A stretch of 43,501 nucleotides of DNA from Sandaracinus sp. (GTDB lineage: Bacteria; Myxococcota_A; Polyangia; Polyangiales; Houyiibacteriaceae): positions 9,783 through 53,283 of the forward strand of contig PABA01000234.1 in the NCBI GenBank assembly GCA_002699025.1, in the 5' to 3' direction. The notes beneath the pieces were generated by a model. That model did not search any database. It saw only the letters and a list, made by a program, of their open reading frames with translations, and was not told the DNA's origin. This document shows, piece after piece, positions 8,209 through 23,380 of this stretch. Every line of letters starts with the position of its first letter. Position 1 is the stretch's first letter. A program made the position numbers and the translations under genes.

Positions 8209-9834
8209 TCAGCGGCAGGGCAGCGGGCGGGTCTCCGAGGTGACCTCGAAGCAGTAGGCGACCATCGCGCTCCCGCAGAGGCTCTGGCAGTCCCACCAGG
8301 TGACGTCCTCGCCGCAGGCGCCGTTGCCCGAGTCGTAGCCGTCCAGGCAGCCACCGGGCCCGCAGCCCCCGCAGCCGTTCCGATCGGGCGGCTCCGTGTT
8401 CGCCGGGTCGCAGTCGTACTCCCAGAACGGCCGCTGGGGCTCGTAGATCAAGCACTGGGGGACGCCGCCGAGGAGGCGGAAGTCGCCGCAGCCGAGGACG
8501 CCCTCGTCGTTCATGCAGTAGTCGAGGCCCTCGCGGCAGCGATGGTGCGTCGGCTCCACGAAGTACTCCGTCTGGCCCGGGAAGGCGTCGGGGTTGGCGT
8601 CGTCGCAGTCGCCGCCGGCGAGGGAGAAGCCCGGGTCGCCGGGGCAGCCGCGCCGGACGCCCGCGCCGAAGCCGTCGCCGTCGCCGTCCACGTAGCCGCT
8701 CGGCGGCACGCCCAGGCCCGGGTCGCCGTCGTCGCAGTCGTAGTCCGTCGCCGTCGGCGCCAGGTCGACCGTGCGGTCCGGGCAAGTGCGGCAGGCGCTG
8801 TCGACCGGGTCGCCCGGCGCCGGCACCGCGTCCCGGTCGGCGTCCGCGTAGCAGGGGAAGCGCATGGACGCGTCGCCGTCGTAGGTCTCGTCGACCACGC
8901 CGTCGCAGTCGTCGTCCTCGTCGTTGCAGACCTCCGGGAGCGGCATGATCGAGCAGCTCGCGTCGTTCCAGCGACCGTCCACGCAGGTCTGCGTGCCGGC
9001 CGAGCAGCGCCCCGCGAGCATGCAGTCACGCGTCTGGCCGTCCGTGCAGTCGCAGCCTTCGGGCGGGTTGTTCGGGATCCCGTCGCAGTCGTCGTCGACC
9101 ATGGCCTCGTCGCAGCGGTCGCGGGCGGCCGGGTTCACGCCGCGGGCCAGGTCGTCGCAGTCGTCCGCGCCGGGGGCGAAGCCTTCGGGGGGCGTGCAGC
9201 CGAGGCGCTCCTCGGCGTCCGGGTCCGCGCTACCCACGCCGTCGCCGTCGACGTCCTCGCGGAAGACGAGCTGCACGCCCTCGTCGATCATGCCGTCGCA
9301 GTCGTCGTCGGCGCCGTTGCAGACCTCAGGGGCCGTGGGGTTCGCGCCCGGGTTGCGGTCGTCGCAGTCGCGGCCGCACTCCTCGCCGTTGCAGCAGCGG
9401 AGGTCCGCCCAGCCGTCGCCGTCCACGTCGCGGAAGCCGAAGGTGAGGGGATCGCAGTCCTCGTCGAGACCGTCCTCGTCGCAGACCTCCGCGTTCCCGG
9501 GGAAGCGACCGGGGTGCATATCGTCGCAGTCCGTGCCGCCGCAGCGGGCGTCGCGGACGCCGTCGCCGTCCACGTCGGTCTCGCAGCCGCCCGTGCACTC
9601 GCGCGCGTCTTCGTCGCAGCCGCGGCCTTCGCAAGGCCCGAGCGCGCGGACGCAGCCGACGGCGCTCGCGAGGGGCGAGGTCGGCACGCAGGCCTCCTCG
9701 CCGTTGCAGAAGACCCCGTCGTCGCAGTCCGCGTCGGTCTCGCAGATGGGCCCGAGCGGGCCGCCCCCACCGTCTTCCCCGCAGGCCAGTAGAGCGAGGG
9801 CGCCGAGGACGAGCGCAGGGGCGGAGTGCCGCAT
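8209..9834 (-). CDS. MopE-like lipoprotein with repeated DCDD metal-binding motifs
   Basis: This 541-residue predicted lipoprotein has an N-terminus ending in LALLAC (Cys18), a usable lipobox, followed by a Gly-rich linker. The body repeats the pattern DxDGDGxxD...DCDDxxPxxxPxxxExCNxxDDDCDGxxDE five or more times (TDCDD, RDCDD, DDCDD, YDCDD, GDCDD). This is the 'putative metal-binding motif' family that includes the copper-binding MopE of Methylococcus, and it is abundant in myxobacteria. Such Asp-rich loops resemble calcium-binding repeats. The C-terminus is Cys-rich (GCGGCGPGGC). Its location is probably the cell surface or the periplasmic face. The substrate is unknown, and the metal assignment comes from the family only. 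Confidence 0.88.
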   Translation of the reverse strand: MRHSAPALVLGALALLACGEDGGGGPLGPICETDADCDDGVFCNGEEACVPTSPLASAVGCVRALGPCEGRGCDEDARECTGGCETDVDGDGVRDARCGGTDCDDMHPGRFPGNAEVCDEDGLDEDCDPLTFGFRDVDGDGWADLRCCNGEECGRDCDDRNPGANPTAPEVCNGADDDCDGMIDEGVQLVFREDVDGDGVGSADPDAEERLGCTPPEGFAPGADDCDDLARGVNPAARDRCDEAMVDDDCDGIPNNPPEGCDCTDGQTRDCMLAGRCSAGTQTCVDGRWNDASCSIMPLPEVCNDEDDDCDGVVDETYDGDASMRFPCYADADRDAVPAPGDPVDSACRTCPDRTVDLAPTATDYDCDDGDPGLGVPPSGYVDGDGDGFGAGVRRGCPGDPGFSLAGGDCDDANPDAFPGQTEYFVEPTHHRCREGLDYCMNDEGVLGCGDFRLLGGVPQCLIYEPQRPFWEYDCDPANTEPPDRNGCGGCGPGGCLDGYDSGNGACGEDVTWWDCQSLCGSAMVAYCFEVTSETRPLPCR

Positions 9835-9933
9835 GACCGGAACAGTACACGAGTGGGTGCGGCGAGGGCGTGGACGCCGGGGCGCGCCGGGCGCGCATTG
9901 GATGGGCTGGCGCGGCGTCGTAGGATGCGGGCG

Positions 9934-11337
9934 ATGGGCGCCGAATCGGACGAGGCACGCGAAGAGGACGCGGTGGAGGAGGAGGCGCGGGCGGGCGGCG
10001 ACGCGGACGCGGAGGCCGGCCCGGACGCCGAGGCGGAAGCCCACGCGGACGCCGAAGCCGAAGCCGACGCGGACGCCGCCCCCGACGCGGACGCCGCCCC
10101 CGACGCCGCAGCAGATGGGACGGCCGACACCGAAGCCGAGGCCGACGGAGACGCCCCCGACGTCTCGGCGGATGGGACAGCCGAGTCGGGAGCCGATGCC
10201 GACGCCGAAGCCGAGCCGGGAGCCGACGCGGGAGCGGAAGCGGAAGCAGAAGCCGAGCCGGGAGCCGACGCCGGAGCGGAAGCCGAGTCGGGAGCCGATG
10301 CCGACGCAGGAGCGGAAGCGGAAGCAGAAGCCGGCGCCGAAGCAGAGACCGACGCCGCCGAAGCCGACGCAGGAGCGGAAGCAGAAGCCGGCGCCGGAGC
10401 AGAGACCGACGCCGACGCCGACGAGCGCGACCCGGACACCGGCTTCACCGCCGCCGAGGCCGCCGCCCTGCCCGACCCCAAGGCCCGCCTCGAGGCCGAG
10501 GCCAAGGCCGCCGAGGCCGCCCTCGAGCGCGCCCGCCTCGCCGCCTCCGCCACCAAGAAGGACGCGAGCTACCCGACCGCCGACGCCTCCTCCCAGCGCT
10601 ACGCCGGCTGGGGCTGCCTGGCGCTGCTCGCGCTCCTCACGTTCGGCTTCTGGTTCGTCTTCCACAACGCCTTCGACCGGCTCACGGCGCTCGAGTCCAA
10701 CAGCACGACGCACTTCGAGGACGTCACCACCGGCTACCACCAGGACACGCCGGACCGGACGCGCCGCGCGCCGAACCGGGAGCGCATCGAGTGGGAGCAC
10801 GACTTCGGCCTCGCGCTCGCCCGCGCCGAGTCCCAGCGCAAGCCGCTCCTGATCGTCTTCGAGGCGCGCTGGGCCACCGCCAGCCAGGACCTCCTCGAGG
10901 GCACCTTCTCCAACGCCGCCGTCGTCGCCTCCGTCGAGCGCTTCGTCCCCGTGCGCGTCGACCTCACGCAGCGGGGCGGCGAGAACGACCGCATCGCCGA
11001 GCGCTTCGGCGTCGACGGCCTGCCGACCGTGGTCTACCTCGCGCCCGACGGGACCCGCCTGCGGCCCGACTCCACGGACCTGGTGGACGCGCGCGACATG
11101 CAGGTCTTCCTGATGGAGGCGCACTCCTCCTTCGGCGACGACCGGCGCTTCGACCCGACGAGCGCGCCCCCGCCGCCCGTGCCCTTCGACCCGAGCGACC
11201 TCGACCGCATCCTCGCGGGTGAAGAGGGCCCGGACCCGAGCGCCGCGGACGGCACCGACCTCGACGCCCTGCTCCGGGGCGCGACCGGCGACGGCGACGA
11301 CACGCCGAGCGAAGAGAGCGACGACGCCACCGATTGA
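9934..11337 (+). CDS. Membrane-anchored thioredoxin-fold protein lacking the CxxC
   Basis: The product has 467 residues from the ATG at 9934, which follows TAGGA; an in-frame ATG at 9925 is possible. The first 165 residues are almost only Ala, Asp, Glu and Gly, built from imperfect DNA repeats such as GGAGCGGAAGCAGAAGCCG. A single membrane segment lies at about 224-246 (GCLALLALLTFGFWFVF). After it comes a DsbD-gamma/thioredoxin_7-like domain (about 283-380), with KPLLIVFEARW at the active-site strand and a cis-proline at Pro364 (GLPTVVY). The active-site WCxxC is replaced by W313-ATAS, so it cannot do disulfide chemistry. The acidic tail is probably cytoplasmic and the thioredoxin fold periplasmic, perhaps as a binding or chaperone domain. 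Confidence 0.85.
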   Translation: MGAESDEAREEDAVEEEARAGGDADAEAGPDAEAEAHADAEAEADADAAPDADAAPDAAADGTADTEAEADGDAPDVSADGTAESGADADAEAEPGADAGAEAEAEAEPGADAGAEAESGADADAGAEAEAEAGAEAETDAAEADAGAEAEAGAGAETDADADERDPDTGFTAAEAAALPDPKARLEAEAKAAEAALERARLAASATKKDASYPTADASSQRYAGWGCLALLALLTFGFWFVFHNAFDRLTALESNSTTHFEDVTTGYHQDTPDRTRRAPNRERIEWEHDFGLALARAESQRKPLLIVFEARWATASQDLLEGTFSNAAVVASVERFVPVRVDLTQRGGENDRIAERFGVDGLPTVVYLAPDGTRLRPDSTDLVDARDMQVFLMEAHSSFGDDRRFDPTSAPPPPVPFDPSDLDRILAGEEGPDPSAADGTDLDALLRGATGDGDDTPSEESDDATD

Positions 11338-11409: not shown

Positions 11410-12717
11410 TCAGTCGTCCTCGAGCAGCCCGTGCTGCTTCATCTTCCGCCAGAGCGTGCTCCGGCTGATCCCGAGGATGCTCGCCGCCCGCCCCCGGTGC
11501 CCGCCCGCCCGCTCGAGCGCCCGCCGCAGCTGCTTCTCCTCCGACGAGGCCCCCTCCGGCAGCCGCTCCGGCACGTTCACCGTCGGCGCCATCGGATCCT
11601 CACCGCGAATCTCCGGCGGCAGGTCCGCCTCGAGCAGCACGCTCCCCTCGCCCATGGCGAAGGCGTACTCGATCACGTTCCGCAGCTCGCGCACGTTGCC
11701 CGGCCACTCCCAGCTCTCGAGCAGCTTCGCCGCCCCATGCGAGATCTGGTCGATCTTCCGCATGTCGTCGGCCAGCTCGTCCAGGAAGCGCCGCGCCAGC
11801 AAGGTCACGTCCTCGGGCCGCTCGCGGAGCGGCGGGATGAAGAGCGGGATGACCCGCAGCCGGTACATCAGGTCCTCGCGGAAGGTCCCCTCGTCGATCA
11901 TCTCCCGCAGCGAGCGGTTGGTCGCCGAGACGATGCGCACGTCCACGGGCACCGGCTCGCGCCCGCCGACGGGGATGACCGTCTTCTCCTGCAGCACGCG
12001 CAGCAGCTTCGCCTGCAGATCGAGCGAGAGCTCCCCGACCTCGTCGAGGAAGAGCGTGCCGCCCTCCGCCAGCCGGAAGTGCCCCGGCGCGTCGCGCACG
12101 GCGCCCGTGAAGGCCCCGCGCACGTGACCGAAGAGCTCGCTCTCGAGCAGGTTCGGCGGGAGCGCCGCGCAGTTGATCGCGCGGAAGGGACCGCCCGAGC
12201 GCCGCGACGCCTCGTGGATCGCGTTGGCCACGAGCTCCTTGCCCGAGCCGGTCTCGCCCCGCACGAGCACCGTGACGTTGCGCTTGGCCACGCGCTCCAC
12301 GTCGCGGAAGAGCTTCTTCATCAGCGGCGAGCGCGTCGCCATGCCCCACATCTCGACGGGCTCGTCGGGCCCCGTGCTCTCCCAGCTCTCCCCCTCGAGG
12401 GCGAGCAGCCAGCCGAGCCGCTCCCCGGCGCGCTCGAGCGGGGACGCGCGCACGTGGAGCATGCGCATGCGCCCCGACGCCGTCGGCCGCGGCACCTCGG
12501 CCGTCACCGCGCGCCCCTCGGCGAGCGCCTCGGCCACGGGGCGCTGCTCGCCCGCGCCGCAGAGCAGCGCCGGCGCCGGCACCATGCGCTCCATGGGCCC
12601 GACGAGCTCCTCGGTCCGCGGGGTCCACGCGAGCACGCGGAGCTGCGCGTCGAGCACGATCGCCGCCCCGAGCGCCTCCTCCAGCGCGGTGGTCAGCACC
12701 TCTTCGGCGTCCGCCAT
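11410..12717 (-). CDS. Sigma-54-dependent activator with PAS-like N-terminus
   Basis: This 435-residue enhancer-binding protein has an N-terminal PAS-like sensor (about 5-110; AIVLDAQLRVLAWTPRTEEL). The AAA+ domain has Walker A GETGSGKE (154-161), GAFTGA (201-206) and Walker B LFLDEVGE, and there is a Fis-type HTH at the C-terminus (RAASILGISRSTLWRKMKQHG). It lacks a receiver domain, so it is not a classical two-component partner. It is alone on the minus strand between two plus-strand genes. No -24/-12 promoter is evident in the 539-bp gap before the macroglobulin operon, so its targets are not visible here. Confidence 0.93.
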   Translation of the reverse strand: MADAEEVLTTALEEALGAAIVLDAQLRVLAWTPRTEELVGPMERMVPAPALLCGAGEQRPVAEALAEGRAVTAEVPRPTASGRMRMLHVRASPLERAGERLGWLLALEGESWESTGPDEPVEMWGMATRSPLMKKLFRDVERVAKRNVTVLVRGETGSGKELVANAIHEASRRSGGPFRAINCAALPPNLLESELFGHVRGAFTGAVRDAPGHFRLAEGGTLFLDEVGELSLDLQAKLLRVLQEKTVIPVGGREPVPVDVRIVSATNRSLREMIDEGTFREDLMYRLRVIPLFIPPLRERPEDVTLLARRFLDELADDMRKIDQISHGAAKLLESWEWPGNVRELRNVIEYAFAMGEGSVLLEADLPPEIRGEDPMAPTVNVPERLPEGASSEEKQLRRALERAGGHRGRAASILGISRSTLWRKMKQHGLLEDD

Positions 12718-13256: not shown

Positions 13257-16200
13257 ATGCGCACACCGACCTTCCGCCGGCTCCTCGCCGCCCTCGGGCT
13301 CCTCGCCCTCGCGCCCCTCGCCCCCGCGGCCCCCGCGTCCGCCCAGCGCAACACGGGCCTCGAGCTCTCGCTCCACGGCGCCCCGCGCGCCGACTACGGC
13401 GGCGCCCTGCGCGTCGCCGGGGTCGCCTACGAGGTCCAGGGGCTCGCCGACCTGAAGACGCTCGCCAACGCCGAGATCGTCGCGCGCCTCCGCACCTACG
13501 AGACGCGCCCGCGCAGCTGGCGCACGGTCCGCGAAGTCACGGTGCGCGCCGACCGCGACGGCCGCTTCGCCGTCGCCGTGCCGGTCCCCGAGGAGTCCTT
13601 CGCGCGCCCGCAGCTCCAGATCGAGGTGCGCGGCGCCGGACGCACGCGCACCTGGGAGTGGACCGCCCAGCTCACCTCGCCGCTCGCCATGGACCTCCTC
13701 CTCGACCGGCGCCGCTACGAGCCCGGCGAGACCGTGCACCTCTGGGCGCGCCTCCACCGCCGCGGCGACGGCGTCCCGATCACCGGCCGCACGGCCCACG
13801 TCACGGTCACGGACCCGGCGCGCCGCCCGCTCGCGGACCGGCGCCTCCCCATCGGCGCCGGCGGCGTCGTCACCCTCGACGTGGACCTCCCGGACTCGGC
13901 CCCCGACGGACGCTACGGCGTGCAGGTGCGCCTCGACGACAGCGTGGCCGCCGCGAACGCCGGCCAGAGCTTCGAGGTCGGCCGCCGCACGGTCGAGCGC
14001 CTCCTCGTGGACGCCGCCCTCGACCAGCGCGTCGTGCCGCCCTCCGGCCGGCTCACGGGCCAGGTCCGCGTGCGCACGCCCTCCGGCGCGCCCGTCGTCG
14101 GCGCCGACGTGCAGCTCCGCCTCGGGAGCACCACCGAGGAGGTCGAGACCGACGACGAAGGCGTCGCGCCGATCCGCATGCAGGCGCCCGCCTACCTCGC
14201 CGGCGACGTCGCCGCCCAGGCCATCGCCGTGCGCGTCACGCACCCGGGCCACGGCACGCTGAGCGTCAGCGCGCCCTTCCTCCTCTCGCGCGTGGAGTGG
14301 CGCGTCGAGGCGACGCCGGAGAGCGGCGGCATCGTCCCCGAGGTGGACGCGGAGGCGCTGGTCGCCGTCGTCGATCCGCGCGGCGAGCCGGCCCCGGCGG
14401 GCACGCGCCTGAAGGTGAGCGGCGCCGCCGTGCGCGGCCGCGAGGTCACGCTCGAGGTGGACGCCCACGGCCTCGCCGTCGTGCCCCTCCGCATCGCCGA
14501 CGGCGCGGCCGGCCCGATCCGCGAGGGCGACTGCGCCGGCCAGATCGCCACGCGCTTCGACGTCGAGGTGCTCGGCGAGCGCCCGGCCACGGCCACGGTC
14601 TGCGTCCGCGTCAGCCCGAAGGCGCGCGTCCGCCCGCGCGTCCTCCGGCGCGTCGTCGCCCCCGGCGGCGCGGTCGAGGTCGACGTCGCGCGCCACCCGG
14701 ACGCCCGCGGGCGCCCGGTGCTCGTGGAGGCGCTCGTGCAGGGCCACGCCGTCGCGGCGACCTTCACCGAGGGCGGCCGCGCGCGCGTCCAGCTCCCGGA
14801 GGGCGTCGCCGGCGTCGTGCAGATCCGCGCCCGGCCGCTGCTGTCGCCCTCGGACGATCACCCGCTCGACGAGCCGGGCGGCGCGGCCCTCGGCGCCGGC
14901 GCCTACGACGCCGTGCTCGTCCGCCCGGAGGACGCCTTCGGCTTCTCCATCGCCGCCGAGGAGGACGTCTACGAGGTGCGCGAGACGGCCCAGCTCGCCC
15001 TCCGCACGACCCAGAGCGCGCCCGAGGCCTGGGCCGCCTTCGTGGCCCGCGATCTGGCGGCGCACGGCGGCGAGGTGCCCTGGTCGCTGAGCTGGATGCG
15101 CGGCGCCGTGAGCGCGGCCGTCGCGGCGCCGGACGGCGAGGGGGCCGAGCTCCTCCTCCGCTCGGCCCTCACGAGCGGTCTCCCGCAGGACCACGAGCCG
15201 AACCGGCCCCAGCCGCTCGTGCAGCCCTACTGGCGCACGGGGCGCTACCGGGGCGGCCAGGCGGGGACGCTCCGCGACCCGGTCGCCATGCGCAGCGAGA
15301 TGCGGCGCCGCGGCGTCGGCCGCCTGATGATGACGCTCGAGCGCATCGTCGGCGGCACGGAGGCCGACCAGGCCGAGCAGCAGGGCATCGTGCAGCGCCG
15401 CGGCGGGCGCCTCGCCTTCCACCCGGACGTGATCGCCAACCTGAAGCGCGAGCGCCGCCTCGGCAGCCTCGGCGACACGCTCGGCGGCGAGACGGCCTCG
15501 CTCGCGATGATCCGCGCGGTCGACCCGTCCTTCTCCTTCGACGCGGTCGCGCGCCGCCTCGCGCGCCACCAGCTCGTGAAGCTCATGGTCGCGCTGATGC
15601 GCTTCACCGATCCGGACGACGAGAACGCCGCGCGCGCCTCCGCCGGGCAGCCGCCGGAGCGCTGGCTCTCGCGCCTGGTGCAGCTCGGCGTCCTCTCGCC
15701 GCGCGAGCTCGTCGACCCCTGGGGCAACCCCTTCGCCTTCCGGCGAGCGGCCACGCCGCGGGTCGTCATCACGGCGCGGGCGCCGAACTGGGAGCTCGTC
15801 TCGCCGGGCCCGGACGGGCGCGTGGGGACGCGCGACGACGTGCGCGATCCCTTCACGCGGATCGTGCCCCAGGGCACGCCCTACGCCGTGGCCTCCGGCG
15901 AGGACACGCTGATGAAGCAGCTCAGCACGCTCGCGCCCGGCCCGCGCGTCCTCCAGGGCATGGCGCAGGCCTACTCGACCGTGAGCCTCGCCGCGCGCGA
16001 GGAGCAGCGCGCCCGCACGGTGACGGCGACGGGTAGCGAGATGGATCAGACCCTCGGCGGGCTCGCGCTGAACGGCTCCGGCCGCGGGGGTGGCGGCACC
16101 GGCGAAGGCACGATCGGCCTCGGCAACCTGGGCTCGGTCGGCTACGGCCGGGGCGCTGGCCGGGCCGCTCCCTCGCGCCGCTCCCGCGCCTCCGCCGACG

Positions 16201-18638
16201 CGCCGGCCCCCGAGCCCATGGAGATGGAAGAGGCCGCCGCCGAGGACATGGACGACGGCGTCCGCCGCGAGCGCAACGCCCAGCAGCCGGCGCCCCCGCC
16301 CTCCACCTTCGGCACGCTCCGTGACGTGGTCCGCGAGCGCTTCCCGGCGACGCTGCACTTCGTCGGCCTCGTGCCCCTCGACGGCACGCAGACCATGGCC
16401 GAGCTCCCGCTGGCCGACGCGCTCACCACCTACCGGGTCGAGGCCATCGCCTGGAGTGCGAGCGGCTGGCTGACGACCGCCCAGACCGAGGTGCGCGTCG
16501 ATCAGGAGGCCACCATCGACGCGCCGGTCCCGCCCTTCGCGACCGTCGGCGACGCGCTCCGCCTCCCGGTCCGGGTCGCGAACCGCACGGCCCAGCCCCT
16601 CGAGGCGAAGGTCGTCGTGGAGGCCGAGGGGCTCGAGCTCGCGCTGCCGGAGGCCCCGCGGGTGACGGTCCCGCCGCGCGACGCGGTCGAGGTGATCGTC
16701 CCGGTCACGCTCCGGCAGGTCGGCGAGGGGCACCTGCTCGTGCGCGTGCTCCGCGCCAGCGACGACGGCCCCCTCGACGCCGTGCGCCGCCCCCTCGTGG
16801 TCTGGCCCGACGCGCGCCTCGTCCGCGAGCGCCGCGAGCGCCTCCTCGAGCCCGGCGAGGGCGCGGCCGAGCTCCGCTTCGACGTGCCTGCGGACGCCAC
16901 CGAGCGCGGCCCCGGCGAGCTCCGCATCGTCCCCGGCGCCGCCCTCTTCGGCGACGTCGCGGCCTACGGCGGCGCGCAGCCGCTGGCCGGCTGGGCCCTC
17001 GCGCTCCAGGGGCAGTCGATCCCCGAGGAGGTCCTCCAGCGGAGCCGCGCCCTGCTCCGCGCCGGCGACCCGGACGAGTCGCGCGACCTCTACGGCAACC
17101 CGCTGCAGATCGCGCAGGCCGTGAGCACGACCTGGCGCGACGCCACGGTCGACCCGCTCGCGCTGCGTCGCGGGCTGCGCTCCGTGAGTCGCATCCTCGG
17201 CAGCCCCGAGAGCACGAGCCCGGATCCGAACCGGACGCTCCTCTACGCGAACGTGCTCGCCGCCCTCGCGCCGGCCCAGCGCGCCGCGAGCGAGCGGCCC
17301 GCCGTGGAGCACGTGCTCGAGGATCTCTTCGCGCAGCTCCGGACGCGCGCCGGCGACGGGGCCGCGCGGGTGAGCGAGCAGCCCACGGTCTCGGCCAACG
17401 CCGCCTTCGCCCTCGCCCTCGCGGGGGACCCGGGCCGCGCCCGCGAGCTCATGCGCCGCGCCGAGCGCGGGGTCGTGCGCCTCGAGGACCAGGCCTTCCT
17501 CGAGCCCGCCGCGCAGGCCGGCGAGCTCCTCGCGCGCATCGGCCCCACGGCCCACATGGCCGCCGCCTGGGCCGCCCTCGGCGAGCCGGCGCGGGGGCTC
17601 CCGTACCTGCGCGATCTCGTCGCCCTCAGCCCGGCCGTCGAGCGCTGGCCCACCGAGGCGCGCCTGCTGGCGAGCGTCGCCGGCGGCCTGGTCGGCGGCG
17701 GCGGCGCGAGCGCGCCCGTCGAGGCCACGGTGGATGGGCAGCGCGTCCAGCTCGCGGCCCCGGGCGACGACCCGCGGAGCCCCATCCGCGTCGCGACCCT
17801 CCCCGGCCTCGGACGCCCCGGCGAGCACGTCGTGCGCGTCGAGGGGGTCGACGGCCTCGCCCTCGCCTTCGTCGACCTCCGCTACGGCCGCCCCTGGGAC
17901 GCCGAGCCCGCGCGCCGCGCCCGCGTCGACCTCGACATCGGCGGGCCGCTCGGGCCCCGGGACGCGCGCGCCGGCCTGGCGCTCACCGTGCGCAACCGCG
18001 AGGCGCGGCTGCTCGGCGCGCCCATCGTGGAGATCGATCTCCCGGCGGGCACGGAGCTCGACGAGCCGACCCGGCAGGCGCTCGCGGGGCACACCATCGC
18101 CACGCCGACCGTCGAGGGGCGCACGCTCCGGCTCCAGCTCCGGCCCCTCGCGCCCGGCGGCTTCGTGCGGCTCCCGCTGCCGCTCCGCTGGGCCGTCGGC
18201 GGGACGCTCCGGGGCCTCGGCGCGACCGTGCACGACGCCACCGCGTCCGGCCGCGCGGAGGCCCGCGCCGTCTCCGTGCTGCCCTCGCGCGAGCTGACCA
18301 TCGTCGACCGCGGCGCCGAGCCCGAGCAGGCGGAGGCCGAGGCCTCTCCGCCGCCGCCCCCGCCGCCTCCTCCCCCGCCCCCCATCGTGCCCTTCGGCCC
18401 CGTCGCCGCCGCGACGCCCGCCCACGCCACGCCGAGCGCGGGCTCGCGGGCCGCCTCGCCGCGGGTTGGCCGGGCGGAGACGGACTCGCTGGCGGCTGAC
18501 TCGACGGCGGCGGACTGGACGGCGGCCTCGCTGGCGGCCTCGAGGACGGGCCGCTCGCCGACGGGCCGCTCGCCGCACCTCGCGCCGGCCCCCCCTTCCA
18601 CCCACCTCTTCTCGCTTCCCACGGAGGTGCGCTCGTGA
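13257..18638 (+). CDS. Large secreted alpha-2-macroglobulin-like protein with GspG-like insert
   Basis: This 1793-residue protein has an Ala/Leu-rich signal peptide (cleavage after ASA, near residue 30); an in-frame ATG at 13236 would add seven residues. An MG2-like domain begins near 145 (RRYEPGETVHLWARL), with further MG-like beta domains after it and a cysteine pair within GDCAGQ...ATVCVRV. Around 700-870 is a helical segment, then LVDPWGNPF (D820) and WELVSPGPDGRVGTRDD, which resemble the GspG/T2SSG C-terminal core. A Gly-rich linker (about 934-975, GGGGTGEGTIGLGNLG) and an A2M domain (VRERFPATLHFVG...LTTYRVEAIAW) follow. The C-terminus is an alpha-toroid-like region, a run of 12 prolines and a low-complexity tail. 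No CxEQ thioester motif is present, as in E. coli YfaS. It overlaps the next gene in a GTGA. The role is unknown. Confidence 0.85.
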   Translation: MRTPTFRRLLAALGLLALAPLAPAAPASAQRNTGLELSLHGAPRADYGGALRVAGVAYEVQGLADLKTLANAEIVARLRTYETRPRSWRTVREVTVRADRDGRFAVAVPVPEESFARPQLQIEVRGAGRTRTWEWTAQLTSPLAMDLLLDRRRYEPGETVHLWARLHRRGDGVPITGRTAHVTVTDPARRPLADRRLPIGAGGVVTLDVDLPDSAPDGRYGVQVRLDDSVAAANAGQSFEVGRRTVERLLVDAALDQRVVPPSGRLTGQVRVRTPSGAPVVGADVQLRLGSTTEEVETDDEGVAPIRMQAPAYLAGDVAAQAIAVRVTHPGHGTLSVSAPFLLSRVEWRVEATPESGGIVPEVDAEALVAVVDPRGEPAPAGTRLKVSGAAVRGREVTLEVDAHGLAVVPLRIADGAAGPIREGDCAGQIATRFDVEVLGERPATATVCVRVSPKARVRPRVLRRVVAPGGAVEVDVARHPDARGRPVLVEALVQGHAVAATFTEGGRARVQLPEGVAGVVQIRARPLLSPSDDHPLDEPGGAALGAGAYDAVLVRPEDAFGFSIAAEEDVYEVRETAQLALRTTQSAPEAWAAFVARDLAAHGGEVPWSLSWMRGAVSAAVAAPDGEGAELLLRSALTSGLPQDHEPNRPQPLVQPYWRTGRYRGGQAGTLRDPVAMRSEMRRRGVGRLMMTLERIVGGTEADQAEQQGIVQRRGGRLAFHPDVIANLKRERRLGSLGDTLGGETASLAMIRAVDPSFSFDAVARRLARHQLVKLMVALMRFTDPDDENAARASAGQPPERWLSRLVQLGVLSPRELVDPWGNPFAFRRAATPRVVITARAPNWELVSPGPDGRVGTRDDVRDPFTRIVPQGTPYAVASGEDTLMKQLSTLAPGPRVLQGMAQAYSTVSLAAREEQRARTVTATGSEMDQTLGGLALNGSGRGGGGTGEGTIGLGNLGSVGYGRGAGRAAPSRRSRASADAPAPEPMEMEEAAAEDMDDGVRRERNAQQPAPPPSTFGTLRDVVRERFPATLHFVGLVPLDGTQTMAELPLADALTTYRVEAIAWSASGWLTTAQTEVRVDQEATIDAPVPPFATVGDALRLPVRVANRTAQPLEAKVVVEAEGLELALPEAPRVTVPPRDAVEVIVPVTLRQVGEGHLLVRVLRASDDGPLDAVRRPLVVWPDARLVRERRERLLEPGEGAAELRFDVPADATERGPGELRIVPGAALFGDVAAYGGAQPLAGWALALQGQSIPEEVLQRSRALLRAGDPDESRDLYGNPLQIAQAVSTTWRDATVDPLALRRGLRSVSRILGSPESTSPDPNRTLLYANVLAALAPAQRAASERPAVEHVLEDLFAQLRTRAGDGAARVSEQPTVSANAAFALALAGDPGRARELMRRAERGVVRLEDQAFLEPAAQAGELLARIGPTAHMAAAWAALGEPARGLPYLRDLVALSPAVERWPTEARLLASVAGGLVGGGGASAPVEATVDGQRVQLAAPGDDPRSPIRVATLPGLGRPGEHVVRVEGVDGLALAFVDLRYGRPWDAEPARRARVDLDIGGPLGPRDARAGLALTVRNREARLLGAPIVEIDLPAGTELDEPTRQALAGHTIATPTVEGRTLRLQLRPLAPGGFVRLPLPLRWAVGGTLRGLGATVHDATASGRAEARAVSVLPSRELTIVDRGAEPEQAEAEASPPPPPPPPPPPPIVPFGPVAAATPAHATPSAGSRAASPRVGRAETDSLAADSTAADWTAASLAASRTGRSPTGRSPHLAPAPPSTHLFSLPTEVRS

Positions 18639-21600
18639 GCCGTACCCTCTCCCGCGGCGGGCGCCTGCTCGCCCTCGCCTTCGCCCTCCTCCTGCCCGGC
18701 GCCCCCGACGCCGAGGGCCAGTCCACCACCCGCCGCCCCGTGCGCCGCGGCGACGTCACCGGCGTCGAGATGCAGCTCGAGGGCGCGCTCCACGCGACGC
18801 GCGGCGGCACGCTCCGCTGGTCCGTCGTCGCCTACGAGGTCGTCGGCCTGGACCAGCTCCGGCCGGCCGCCGGCGCCGAGATCCGCGTCGCCACCTCCCT
18901 CACGCCCGGCGAGCTCGCGGCGGAGGTCACGGCCGATCGCCGCGGTCGCGCGCTCGTGGAGATCGAGGTCCCGGAGGACGCCCCCGAGCGCTTCGGCGCC
19001 ACCGTCGTCGTGCACGCGCGCCGCGGCGTCTCCCGGCGCTTCGAGCTCGGCGTGACCACCCAGGACCCGCGCACGCTCCGCCTGATGGGCGCCGCGCAGG
19101 TCACCCCCGGCGGCGCGCTCCCGGTCTTCGGCCGCTACGCCCACACCGACGGGCCGGCCCTCGCCGGCGAGACCCTCGAGCTCACCCTCCGCGACGGCCG
19201 CGGCCCCCTCGGCGCCCCGGTGCGCGTCGAGACGGACGCCGGCGGTGTCTTCACGCACACCTTCGCGATTCCCCGCGACGCCGAGGGCGCGCTCCAGGTT
19301 CGCGCCACGGGCCCGCGGGACGACGCCCGGCGCCAGGTCCACGCGCAGCATGCCGCCACGCTCCTCGCTCCGAGCGAGCCGCCCCTGGTCGTCCAGCTCG
19401 CGCCCGCGCAGGGCCAGTGGCTCGTCGCCCCGAACGCGGACGTGCGCTTCGACGTGGTCGTACGCCGCGCCGACGGCCGGCCCGTCTCGAACGCGCGCGT
19501 GCGCCTCCACCGCCCGGTGCCGCTCACGGCCGAGCTCGACCAGGATCGGCGCGACCCCTGGGTGCTCACGGACGCGCGCGGCCGCGCGCAGCTCGAGTGG
19601 GAGGCGCCGCGGCTCCGGCAGGGCTGGCGCGACGTGAGCGTGACGGCCCACGCGGGCAAGGCCGGCGTCGGCCAGGGCAGCGGCGGCGCCCGGCTCCGCG
19701 TCACCGCCAGCCGCCACGGGGCGCGCCTCGCCGTCGAGGGCGGCGCGCTCACGCCCGAGCTCGGCGGCCGCGTCTTCGTGCGCGTCGCCACCGTCGACGG
19801 TCGGCCCGCCCCGGCCGGCGTCCCCGTGAAGCTCGTCGGCCCGCGCGTCGGCGAGGTCGAGGGGCAGACCGACGAGAGCGGCGTGGCGGCGCTCGACGTC
19901 TCGCTCCGGGACCCGGCAGAGGACGACCGCTGCGGGGGCGAGGCCGCGACCGCCGCGCGCGTCTTCGTCGCTGGCGCCCAGACCGCCGACTCCTACTGCC
20001 TCGCCGTCGACCCGGACGCCGCCGCCCGCGTGCACGCCACCCCGGCGCATCCGACCGCCGGCCAGGAGATCCAGGTCGAGGTCGCCCGCACCCGCGCGGC
20101 CCGCGGCCTGCCCATCGTCCTGACGGCGCTCCGGCGCGTGGGCGACCGGCTCGAGGCCGTGGGCGTCGCCGTGCTCGAGGGCCGCCAGGACGCGGCGACG
20201 ATCACGCTCCCCGAGGACGCCATCGGCGAGGTGCTCCTCCGCGCTCGCCCGCTCGTCGGCCGGAGCCTGCAGGAGGCCCGCGGCGCGCTCACCTCCCTCT
20301 ACGTGGAGCCCGGCCCGGGGCTCGCCCTCGAGGCCCGCGCCCGCGGGGAGCTCGACGCCGTGCGCGCCGACCTCTCCGCCACCGGCGAGCCCGCCTCCCT
20401 GCTCGCCCTCGCCGTGCCGCTCGGCCAGGCCGGCTCCCTCGAGCAGCAGACCGCCGGCCTCGTCGCCGGCCCCTTCGGCCGCCTCCCGGAGTCGCCCACG
20501 GACGCCCTCTACGCCGCCCTCCTCGCGGAGCGCACGCCCATGGACGTCGCCGCGCCGGTCGTGCTCCGCGGCCGCGACCTCGAGCCCCAGCCCGAGCCCA
20601 CGAACCCGACGCGCCTCGGCCTCCTCCGCGATCCCTGGCGCGCGAGCTCGCGCTTCGTCGAGGGCCGCCTCGCGCTCGTCTTCCGCGCCATCGAGGCGCG
20701 CGTCGACCAGGCCGTCCCGGAGGAGCTCGACGAGGTCGCCGTGGAGGAGCGCGGCCGCTTCCGCTTCAACCGGCAGCTCCTCGCCTCGCTCGCGAGCGGC
20801 AGCCTGGGCAGCGAGGGCGCGACGGGCCTCGGCGGCGAGCCGCTGACCATCGAGCGCCTCGAGGGCCTCGACCGCGCCTTCGACTACGACCACGTCGCGC
20901 GGCGCATCACACGCAAGCGCCTCTTCAAGGTGCTCCTCGCGCTGCGCAGCTTCGTGCAGCAGTCGGCCCTCGACCTCGCCTGGACCCGCCCCGGCGATCC
21001 GACGCTCTGGCTCGAGCGCCTGCGCAACCGGGGCGTGCCCGGGCTCGGGAGCCTCCAGCCGCGCGAGCTCGTCGACGGCTGGGGCCGCCCCTTCCAGCTC
21101 CGGGAGACGGCCCGCGCGCGCTTCTCGCGGGTGCAGCCGGTCGCCGGCTACGAGCTGGTCAGCGCCGGCCCCGACGGGCGCTACGGCAACGGCGACGACC
21201 TCGTCGACCCGACCGCGCGCGTGCTCCCGGCGGGCTCGCTCTACGCCGAGGCCGTGGGCGAGGACGCGCTCGTCGCGCGGCTCCAGGGCGTGGAGCTCGG
21301 CCGGGCCACGCTCGCCATGGCCGCCGGCGCCTTCTCCGCGCCGCAGCCGCGCATCGCCCCGCCGCCCGACGACGGGCCGCGGCAGACGAACCTCGGCACG
21401 CTCCCGCCGCTCTTCGAGCCGCCCGACTTCCCGCTCGCGATCCGGCGTCCGACCGAGCCGGCCGACGCGCGCCTCGTGCGGGCCGAGCCCGGGAGCGTGC
21501 GCCTCGAGGTCGATCGGGAGCCGCGCACCTGGCGCTTCTTCGCCGTCGGCTTCACGGCCCGCGGGCGAGCGGCCCGCGCTCGGGGCGGCGCCCGGGCCGG

Positions 21601-23380
21601 CGCGCCCGTGCTCTCGGATCTGGCGCTCCCCTCCCGGCTGCGCGTCGGCGAGCGGCTGACCTTCCCGCTCCACCTGACGAACGTCACGGAGGAGGCCGCC
21701 CAGTACGCCTTCGCCGTCGAGGCCGAGGGCGTCGAGGTGGCGCTGGACGGGAGCGAGCTGAGCCTCCCCGCCGGCGAGAGCCGGAGCGTGGCCGTCACGC
21801 TCACGGGCACGACGCCCGGCCGCCACCCGGTGCAGGTGGGCCTCGCGCAGGGCGAGCAGGTGGTGCGCGAGGTGCGCCGCCGCGTCGCCGTGGACCGGGG
21901 CCTCCACCCGATCCGGCGGCGCGTCGCCGGGCTCGTCGGCGAAGAGGGCTGGGAGGTCGACTTCCCGCTGCCCGAGGACGCCGAGGGGGCCCAGGCGCGG
22001 GTCGTGCTCGTGGCGCCGACGGCGCTCGCGGCGGACCCGGACTTCCACGCGCTCCGCGAGGACGACCCGGCGCTCGTGGCCTGGTTCGAGACCCTCGTGG
22101 GGCGGCGCCCGGCCGAGTCGCTCCGGGCCGCGCTGCTTCGCCAGCAGGATCCGGGGGGCGCGGTCCGCGGCGAGGAGGCGGCGCTCTCGACGGCGGCGGC
22201 GATCGTCGCCTGGAGCGCCGCGCTCGACGACGAGGGCCGGCCGGACGCGGAGGCGCAGGCGGCGCGCGCGCGGGCCGTGCGGCGCCTCGGCGCGCTCGGC
22301 GCCTTCCGCGACTCGGATGGACGGGCCGGGCGGCTGCGCATGCAGGCCGCGGTCGTCGGCGCGCTCGCGACGAGCGGCCTCGGCAGCCTCGACGTGGACC
22401 CGGCGCGGCACGCGGACCCGGTCGTGCGCACGCTGCGCGGCTGGCTCCCGCAGCTCCGGCGCGCGCTCCGCGACGTGCCCGGCGAGCCGACGCTCCTCGC
22501 CCGCGCCGCCGGCGCGCTGCTCCTCGCGGACCCGCGCGACGGGCACGGGCGGGCCATGCTCGCGGAGGCGCTCGAGCAGGTCGGCGAGGACGGCCTGGTG
22601 AAGCTCGGCGAGACGCGCCGCGGCGTGGGCGAGCGCGTGACGGCGACCCTCGCGCTCGCCGTGGCCGCGCACCAGGCGCGGGACGGGGAGGCCGCGCGCC
22701 GGCTCCTCGGCGCCGCGGCGGCGCACACGCCCTCCATCGCGCGGCAGGGCGGCGAGCCGGCCTTCTGGTGGTTCGCCGCCGGCGCCTACGGGGCGCTCGG
22801 CGGCGCGGCGCCCGAGCGCGTCCGCTTCGAGGCCGACGGCGAGGAGCAGGAGATCGCCCTCGAAGACGGGCGGGCCTTCGCGCCCTTCGCGATCGAGCCC
22901 GGCGAGACCGTGACCCTCGAGGCCGCGAGCCTGGAGGGCGAGCGGGCGCCGGTGCTGGTGCGCTTCGAGGCCGTCTTCGGGCGGCGCTTCGCGGCGCGCC
23001 GGGACGCGCCCTTCCGGCTCGAGCTCGAGGGGGACGTCGGCGGCGTCGGCCGGCTCGCGGCGCTCGAGCTCCGCGTGAGCGCGACGACCGCGGTCGACGA
23101 CGGCGTGCTCGATCTGCAGCTCCCGGGAGGCGTGGAGGCCGAGAACGCGCTCCTCCGCAGCCTCGAGGCCAACGCCATGGTGCGGAGCGCCGAGGCGCGG
23201 AACCCGGGCTTCGTGCGCCTCCGCCTCGCGCCCTTCTCCGCCGAGCAGAGCGCGCCCGTCCCCGTGCCGCTGCACTGGCAGGCCTCCGGCACCGTCACCG
23301 GCCTCGGCGTCGTCGCCTACCCGGAGGCGGATCCGGACCAGATGACCGTCCTCGCCCCCCGCGAGTGGAACGTGCCCTGA
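18635..23380 (+). CDS. Second alpha-2-macroglobulin-like paralogue with GspG-like insert
   Basis: This 1581-residue paralogue starts at a GTG that overlaps the stop of the upstream gene, so the two are translationally coupled and probably made in equal amounts. A signal peptide (LLALAFALLLPGAPDAEG) indicates export. The order of parts parallels the first protein: N-terminal YEVVGLDQL domain, MG-like beta domains with a conserved cysteine pair (DRCGGE...DSYCLAV), a helical segment, and a GspG-like stretch LVDGWGRPF (near 814) with YELVSAGPDGRYGNGDD. A divergent A2M-like region and a helical toroid-like region follow. It lacks the Gly-rich linker, the polyproline tail and the thioester. The two proteins may form a hetero-complex on the periplasmic side; that is inference. 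Confidence 0.83.
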   Translation: MSRTLSRGGRLLALAFALLLPGAPDAEGQSTTRRPVRRGDVTGVEMQLEGALHATRGGTLRWSVVAYEVVGLDQLRPAAGAEIRVATSLTPGELAAEVTADRRGRALVEIEVPEDAPERFGATVVVHARRGVSRRFELGVTTQDPRTLRLMGAAQVTPGGALPVFGRYAHTDGPALAGETLELTLRDGRGPLGAPVRVETDAGGVFTHTFAIPRDAEGALQVRATGPRDDARRQVHAQHAATLLAPSEPPLVVQLAPAQGQWLVAPNADVRFDVVVRRADGRPVSNARVRLHRPVPLTAELDQDRRDPWVLTDARGRAQLEWEAPRLRQGWRDVSVTAHAGKAGVGQGSGGARLRVTASRHGARLAVEGGALTPELGGRVFVRVATVDGRPAPAGVPVKLVGPRVGEVEGQTDESGVAALDVSLRDPAEDDRCGGEAATAARVFVAGAQTADSYCLAVDPDAAARVHATPAHPTAGQEIQVEVARTRAARGLPIVLTALRRVGDRLEAVGVAVLEGRQDAATITLPEDAIGEVLLRARPLVGRSLQEARGALTSLYVEPGPGLALEARARGELDAVRADLSATGEPASLLALAVPLGQAGSLEQQTAGLVAGPFGRLPESPTDALYAALLAERTPMDVAAPVVLRGRDLEPQPEPTNPTRLGLLRDPWRASSRFVEGRLALVFRAIEARVDQAVPEELDEVAVEERGRFRFNRQLLASLASGSLGSEGATGLGGEPLTIERLEGLDRAFDYDHVARRITRKRLFKVLLALRSFVQQSALDLAWTRPGDPTLWLERLRNRGVPGLGSLQPRELVDGWGRPFQLRETARARFSRVQPVAGYELVSAGPDGRYGNGDDLVDPTARVLPAGSLYAEAVGEDALVARLQGVELGRATLAMAAGAFSAPQPRIAPPPDDGPRQTNLGTLPPLFEPPDFPLAIRRPTEPADARLVRAEPGSVRLEVDREPRTWRFFAVGFTARGRAARARGGARAGAPVLSDLALPSRLRVGERLTFPLHLTNVTEEAAQYAFAVEAEGVEVALDGSELSLPAGESRSVAVTLTGTTPGRHPVQVGLAQGEQVVREVRRRVAVDRGLHPIRRRVAGLVGEEGWEVDFPLPEDAEGAQARVVLVAPTALAADPDFHALREDDPALVAWFETLVGRRPAESLRAALLRQQDPGGAVRGEEAALSTAAAIVAWSAALDDEGRPDAEAQAARARAVRRLGALGAFRDSDGRAGRLRMQAAVVGALATSGLGSLDVDPARHADPVVRTLRGWLPQLRRALRDVPGEPTLLARAAGALLLADPRDGHGRAMLAEALEQVGEDGLVKLGETRRGVGERVTATLALAVAAHQARDGEAARRLLGAAAAHTPSIARQGGEPAFWWFAAGAYGALGGAAPERVRFEADGEEQEIALEDGRAFAPFAIEPGETVTLEAASLEGERAPVLVRFEAVFGRRFAARRDAPFRLELEGDVGGVGRLAALELRVSATTAVDDGVLDLQLPGGVEAENALLRSLEANAMVRSAEARNPGFVRLRLAPFSAEQSAPVPVPLHWQASGTVTGLGVVAYPEADPDQMTVLAPREWNVP

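What the first reader, a model, noticed from the sequence alone, without database searches (positions are those of the whole stretch)
13257..23380. Paired macroglobulin-like proteins each carry a GspG-like pseudopilin segment
Both giant proteins contain, between the MG-like domains and the A2M-like part, a helical segment followed by LVD(P/G)WG(N/R)PF and then ELVS(P/A)GPDGR with a DD tail. That is the signature of the GspG/T2SSG C-terminal core with its calcium-loop region. I know of no described A2M protein with this insert. The pair lacks the thioester, shares a cysteine pair at the same place, and is coupled by a GTGA overlap, suggesting a hetero-complex that might interact with a secretion or pilus system.
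Basis: partly seen in the sequence, partly recalled or inferred. Interest (0 to 1): 0.75.

Follow-up and report, generated by a model that had tools for sequence, protein, structure and literature searches.

The report
Macroglobulin pair with pseudopilin-like calcium domain
Two neighbouring, secreted, complement-like bacterial proteins carry a calcium-binding domain related to a secretion-system pilus protein in the slot where relatives keep their protease bait or the anaphylatoxin, and the same domain runs through many macroglobulins of the phylum Myxococcota.

Summary
Window genes A (13257-18638) and B (18635-23380) overlap by GTGA, have apparent signal peptides, lack the thioester, share a cysteine pair, and each carries D-x-W-G followed by GPDG(x5)DD. 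Single-protein Pfam hits to T2SSG stay below cut-off, but a 51-member family profile finds only GspG structures in the whole PDB (best 3g20, E 0.005). Profile-profile comparison with GspG-like pseudopilins of the same order gives probability 96.7 (shuffles at most 1.7). The calcium side-chain ligands of 3g20 (D, T, D) are kept: both Asp in 78/78, the third T/N/S in 78/78. AlphaFold models (pLDDT 85 and 92) show macroglobulin/complement folds; the insert plus a linker lies between the two halves of MG6, the bait or C5a slot. It is not peculiar to this pair: single copies occur in Polyangiaceae, and it sits in thioester-bearing A2Ms of other Myxococcota. A and B are sister clades from an old tandem duplication; A has a long bait-like linker, B a short one. 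The insert lacks the prepilin leader and membrane helix, and nothing found links it to a secretion or pilus machine. Best reading: a calcium-stabilised domain in the trigger slot of a two-subunit, thioester-less protease trap.

The parts
13257..18638 (+). Gene A: secreted thioester-less alpha-macroglobulin-like protein, 1793 aa
   Evidence: Pfam MG2 1.6e-11, A2M 8e-9; AlphaFold model of aa 500-1660 matches A2M/complement chains
18635..23380 (+). Gene B: paralogous secreted macroglobulin-like protein, 1581 aa
   Evidence: Weak Pfam bMG3/MG4/A2M; model pLDDT 91.6, pTM 0.85; matches Salmonella A2M and complement C5 from MG1 on, Z 17.7 and 17.2
18635..18638 (+). GTGA stop/start overlap between A and B, with GGAGG just upstream
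   Evidence: Sequence read
13257..13346 (+). Likely Sec signal peptide of A (aa 1-30, ends ASAQ)
   Evidence: Sequence reading; not run through a predictor
18635..18721 (+). Likely Sec signal peptide of B (aa 1-29)
   Evidence: Sequence reading; not run through a predictor
15279..15932 (+). A insert domain, aa 675-892: helical domain with GspG-like core, modelled with pLDDT about 95
15537..15845 (+). A GspG-like core, aa 761-863 (long helix, short helices, DPWG, beta hairpin, calcium loop)
15714..15725 (+). A DPWG motif, aa 820-823; D820 and W822 invariant in 78 relatives
15804..15839 (+). A calcium loop PGPDGRVGTRDD, aa 850-861 (PERCAL-type motif; same spacing and side-chain ligands as 3g20)
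15933..16316 (+). A bait-like linker, aa 893-1020: Gly-rich and low-complexity, mostly pLDDT below 50
16389..16616 (+). A PF00207 domain, aa 1045-1120
16932..17702 (+). A thioester-domain-like toroid without the CxEQ motif, aa 1226-1482
   Evidence: C5 TE domain 9y6c Z 17.8, rmsd 3.4, 240 residues; no CxEQ
20633..21289 (+). B insert domain, aa 667-885
20879..21205 (+). B GspG-like core, aa 749-857
21164..21199 (+). B calcium loop AGPDGRYGNGDD, aa 844-855
21290..21454 (+). B short linker, aa 886-940, without the Gly-rich bait-like stretch
14532..14603 (+). A conserved cysteine pair C426/C449
19931..19999 (+). B conserved cysteine pair C433/C455

Best explanation
A and B are secreted, thioester-less (Type II-like) alpha-macroglobulins that probably act together as a protease trap. 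Shown by computation: both have the complement/A2M fold (A with a thioester-less TED-like toroid), and in both a calcium-motif domain homologous to the C-terminal core of the major pseudopilin GspG sits between the two halves of the MG6 domain, the slot of the A2M bait region and of the C3/C4/C5 anaphylatoxin. In A, but not in B, it is followed by a long disordered Gly-rich stretch. Inferred: the domain works as a calcium-stiffened latch that anchors the start of the bait strand; a protease cutting the A linker (or loss of calcium) frees the latch and lets the MG and TED arms close non-covalently around the protease, while B is the scaffold partner.
For: Homology of the insert: PDB profile search returns only GspG; hhalign 96.7% with controls; T2SSG is the one widely recurrent Pfam family over members, 20 of 51, the next has 2. 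Calcium ligands D853, T858, D861 match those of 3g20 (PMC3396595); over 78 relatives D/D invariant and T/N/S at the third. Slot: VIA alignments begin at A-model 57 = C5 565 and resume at A-model 529 = C5 767; in thioester A2Ms it lies between PF07703 and PF00207. Bait-like disorder. Pair: tandem in many genera, A and B clades 100/100. Type II precedent: MagD traps a protease without a thioester and assembles with co-operonic proteins (PMC5764988); the bait-region domain lies within MG8, human MG6 (PMC4498604).
Against: No experiment. The latch role is inference; the domain could be a spacer or a docking site. B has no obvious bait. A-B contact was not modelled. Masking both motifs removes the profile similarity, so homology rests on two motifs in order and spacing plus a compatible predicted topology; the insert could not be folded and searched alone. 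Its invariance is partly ascertainment, since the loci were found through the insert.
Confidence: 0.45

Rival explanations
1. Docking adapter: the GspG-like domain lets the macroglobulin pair bind type II secretion or type IV pilus machinery, for example to guard against proteases passing through it.
For: Homology to GspG; T2SSG-family genes occur in 33 of 38 genomes of the order.
Against: No prepilin leader or membrane helix in the insert; the domain is internal; neighbours not conserved; same domain in canonical A2Ms across the phylum.
Confidence: 0.12
2. Inert structural spacer: the domain is an old fusion that merely fills the bait slot, its calcium site serving folding alone.
For: Calcium-stabilised folds are common outside the cytoplasm (general knowledge); the helical part diverges between clades (R767/R770 not kept in thioester A2Ms).
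Against: The calcium and DPWG motifs are the only invariant part of a 1160-aa region over 78 proteins (with the ascertainment caveat).
Confidence: 0.2
3. Anaphylatoxin-like effector: cleavage around the domain releases or exposes it as a signal or effector, as C3a and C5a are in complement.
For: Same MG6 slot as C5a by structural alignment ranges; split A2Ms in other Myxococcota end their first chain with this domain or a degenerate form of it.
Against: No sign of a second cleavage site N-terminal of the domain; the part before it is modelled as folded, not as a long linker.
Confidence: 0.1
4. The motifs are a convergent calcium loop (PERCAL-type insertion, as in bacterial peroxidases) unrelated to GspG.
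For: PERCAL motifs occur in unrelated proteins (PMC3396595); similarity vanishes when both motifs are masked.
Against: With either motif masked the other still gives probability 55-90% against pseudopilins; order, spacing and preceding helix match; GspG-like pseudopilins of the order share the GPD..DD loop.
Confidence: 0.08

Closest known systems
Pseudomonas aeruginosa MagD, Type II bacterial alpha-macroglobulin (PMC5764988)
   Same: MG domains, bait-like region, no CxEQ, secreted, encoded with likely partners
   Different: MagD sits in a six-gene operon with smaller partners; here two macroglobulin paralogues form the conserved unit and both carry a GspG-like domain, which the passages read do not mention for MagD
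E. coli / Salmonella Type I A2M (ECAM, SaA2M; PMC4498604)
   Same: Overall fold (Salmonella 4u4j Z 17.7 for B)
Complement C3/C4/C5
   Same: Match from MG1 on; a folded domain between the MG6 halves; C5 too lacks a thioester (general knowledge)
   Different: The inserted domain is GspG-like, not a helical anaphylatoxin; bacterial
GspG / T2SSG major pseudopilin (3g20, 1t92)
   Same: C-terminal core motifs, calcium-ligand residues and their spacing
   Different: No prepilin leader, no N-terminal membrane helix, embedded inside another protein
PERCAL calcium motif G-x-D-G-x(5)-D-D (PMC3396595)
   Same: Exact motif match in A and B
   Different: In heme peroxidases it is a loop insertion; here it is part of a GspG-like core

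Membership tests
Alpha-macroglobulin superfamily | MG-domain scaffold with PF00207 domain | tested here: met
   Pfam for A (B only E 0.024); structural matches for both
Alpha-macroglobulin superfamily | Thioester-type alpha-alpha toroid | tested here: met
   A: C5 TE domain Z 17.8, rmsd 3.4 A, 240 residues. The C-terminus of B was not modelled
Type I A2M | CxEQ thioester motif | tested here: not met
   No such motif in A, B or 116 family ORFs
Type II A2M (MagD-like) | No CxEQ but a bait region and protease trapping | tested here: inconclusive
   CxEQ absent, disordered linker in A; trapping not testable here; mag operon partners were not searched for
T2SSG / GspG C-terminal core | Score over the curated Pfam cut-off | tested here: not met
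   PF08334 12.4 bits for whole A, 16.7 for its segment, cut-off 21
T2SSG / GspG C-terminal core | Family-profile similarity to GspG beyond chance | tested here: met
T2SSG / GspG C-terminal core | Calcium-ligand residues as in 3g20 | tested here: met
   Residues and spacing match in sequence; binding itself not tested
T2SSG / GspG C-terminal core | Fold superposes on GspG | tested here: inconclusive
   Confident helix / DPWG / beta-hairpin / loop models, but the domain could not be searched alone
Pseudopilin (T2SS component) | Prepilin leader [GAS]F[TS]LxE and N-terminal membrane helix | tested here: not met
   No such motif in A or B; the segment is internal

The most novel reading that the evidence does not exclude
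A bacterial complement-like system: an obligate A/B macroglobulin heterodimer in which a pseudopilin-derived, calcium-gated domain occupies the anaphylatoxin/bait slot and acts as the trigger, with the same module also in thioester A2Ms and in A2Ms split into two coupled genes just after it.
Probability: 0.2. Interest if true: 0.85.

Novelty: new variant of a known kind. Interest (0 to 1): 0.6.

Why it matters
It shows a pilus-protein core reused as a calcium domain in the trigger slot of bacterial macroglobulins, parallel to the anaphylatoxin domain of complement, in a phylum with many predatory, protease-secreting bacteria. It makes two questions directly testable: what a folded domain in the bait slot does, and how thioester-less macroglobulins trap without covalent capture. 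It also gives a clear two-subunit case, with the long bait-like linker in only one partner.

Tried and rejected
Single-protein Pfam and NCBIfam scans: T2SSG below cut-off; the NCBIfam GltG hit in A covers only the Gly-rich linker. An A1-profile scan of 30 phylum A2M loci gave no hit, with minus-strand loci read in the wrong orientation; redone by pattern in both orientations, 7 of the 14 loci with GC[FLGV]EQ carry D-x-[WF]-G plus G-x-D..DD, and 0 of the other 16; the pattern was loosened along the way, so these counts are a rough survey. Foldseek and VIA on the whole models list only macroglobulin and complement chains in the rows shown; with over 1000 residues this says nothing about the insert. 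Conserved gene neighbours: none found. Considered and rejected: chance motif; a feature special to this pair. The EpsG calcium paper itself is not held; ligands were taken from PMC3396595.

Full report
OBSERVATION. Genes A (13257-18638) and B (18635-23380) are as described: a GTGA overlap with GGAGG just upstream, apparent Sec signal peptides, only two cysteines each (A 426/449, B 433/455), no CxEQ. Each has D-x-W-G then GPDG(x5)DD: A at 820 and 851, B at 814 and 845. None of 20,000 shuffles of A gave the combined pattern. Pfam gives MG2 and A2M for A, and only weak MG matches for B; T2SSG is E 0.17 in A, below cut-off.

IS THE SEGMENT GspG-LIKE? I collected relatives with the genome search, fetched the loci and aligned 51 insert segments (A1). 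Scanned one by one, T2SSG is the only family that recurs widely: 20 of 51 members, best E 0.0019. The A1 profile against the whole PDB returns four hits at E up to 10, all GspG: 3g20 (0.0048), 1t92, 5wda, 29jd; three align from the long helix to the DD, the fourth from DPWG on. Against 16 GspG-like pseudopilins of the same order (A4) hhalign gives probability 96.7, E 3e-10. Controls: 40 column shuffles reach at most 1.65, reversed 0.1; masking DPWG leaves 90, masking GPDG..DD leaves 55, masking both leaves nothing. So the sequence case rests on two motifs in the right order and spacing, each informative alone. The A1 profile also rings on many short, pseudopilin-sized ORFs across the phylum.

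CALCIUM SITE. PMC3396595 defines G-x-D-G-x(5)-D-D (PERCAL) as a calcium motif, reports calcium binding by a consensus peptide, and lists the 3g20 pseudopilin ligands as P114 and V119 main chain and D117, T122 and D125 side chains in PGPDGVPNTEDD. A reads PGPDGRVGTRDD, B reads AGPDGRYGNGDD. Over 78 relatives, the two ligand Asp positions (A 853 and 861) are D in 78/78, and the ligand Thr position (858) is T 53, N 17, S 8. D820, W822, G851, D853 and D861 are the only invariant columns of the 1161-residue region. Caveat: the loci were found through this segment, so its conservation is partly ascertained.

FOLD AND SLOT. The AlphaFold model of A 500-1660 has mean pLDDT 84.9. The insert (A 675-892) is about 95; A 893-1020 is mostly disordered; a toroid at A 1226-1482 matches the C5 TE domain (Z 17.8, 3.4 A, 240 residues). 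B 25-1110 has pLDDT 91.6 and pTM 0.85 and matches Salmonella A2M (Z 17.7) and C5 from MG1 on. In A, matches to C5 begin at model 57 = C5 565, and those to the C-terminal chain at model 529 = C5 767. The insert plus linker therefore sits between the halves of MG6, where complement carries the anaphylatoxin (general knowledge) and A2Ms the bait region (PMC4498604). Only alignment ranges were available, and the insert could not be folded alone, so its superposition on GspG is untested.

DISTRIBUTION. The genome-wide search names Sandaracinaceae, Polyangiaceae, Labilithrix, Sorangium cellulosum So0157-2 and Minicystis rosea. The tandem pair is found in many genera, often twice per genome, including a second pair in this genome on contig 28 (L052). 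Polyangiaceae-type loci have one copy. In other Myxococcota, canonical A2Ms with TED and an intact GC[FL]EQ carry the segment between PF07703 and PF00207, or just before PF00207 where PF07703 is not called (L157-L162). In a PF00207 survey of 30 loci, 7 of the 14 with GC[FLGV]EQ carry a matching pattern and none of the other 16. A tree built without the insert columns gives A, B and single-copy clades at 100 and the thioester group at 99, so the insert probably predates the A/B duplication, and the thioester was probably lost in the A/B/single lineage. One row labelled B by BLAST score (L043_+_3601) falls in the A clade. The linker after the insert has a median of 115 aa with 19% Gly in A, 53 aa with 10% in B, and 60 aa with 31% in single-copy forms (four rows could not be assigned to A or B and are left out).

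MECHANISM. Shown by computation: fold, slot, ligand residues, co-inheritance, linker asymmetry. Inferred: a Type II-like, non-covalent protease trap made of A plus B, with the calcium domain as latch or anchor for the bait strand. MagD shows that thioester-less A2Ms can trap a protease and assemble with operon partners (PMC5764988). Docking to a secretion or pilus machine is weaker: no prepilin leader, no conserved neighbour, and the domain is in ordinary A2Ms too.

NOVELTY. Full-text searches found no paper that joins macroglobulin with pseudopilin; three that hold both GspG and macroglobulin appear unrelated, judged from titles and abstracts. The library is open-access papers only. I file it as a new variant of a known kind.

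Noticed in passing
L165:3466-8480 (-); also L203, L204, L205, L209, L213: A2Ms split into two genes at the bait position: the first ORF ends with the GspG-like domain (L165, calcium motif intact) or what looks like a degenerate DxFGRPL form (the others); the second starts with its own apparent lipoprotein signal (TGATGA junction read in L165) and holds A2M and, in L165, TED domains.
   Followed up: partly
L052 (G000:C28:17000-34000): A second, diverged A/B pair in the same genome, with insert and linker asymmetry.
   Followed up: partly
L164:5380-6720, L169:3849-6560, L163:6783-8606, L168:6579-7625: GspG-like cores attached to other proteins in Myxococcota: an S26 signal peptidase, an ABC ATPase C-terminus and two proteins with no other clear family.
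   Followed up: no
window 16041-16226 (A aa about 929-990): The Gly-rich linker of A resembles part of the gliding protein GltG (NCBIfam NF033760, E 4e-4, aa 928-968); G[TS]IG-type Gly-rich stretches recur in many family members.
   Followed up: no
window 18340-18635: A ends in a proline-rich, low-complexity tail of roughly 95-110 aa; BLAST matches to most relatives stop near aa 1697.
   Followed up: no
window 11410-12717 (-) and 8209-11124 (-): Upstream, divergent: a PAS/sigma-54 activator and an ORF with MopE-type metal-binding motifs; not conserved beside other pairs.
   Followed up: partly
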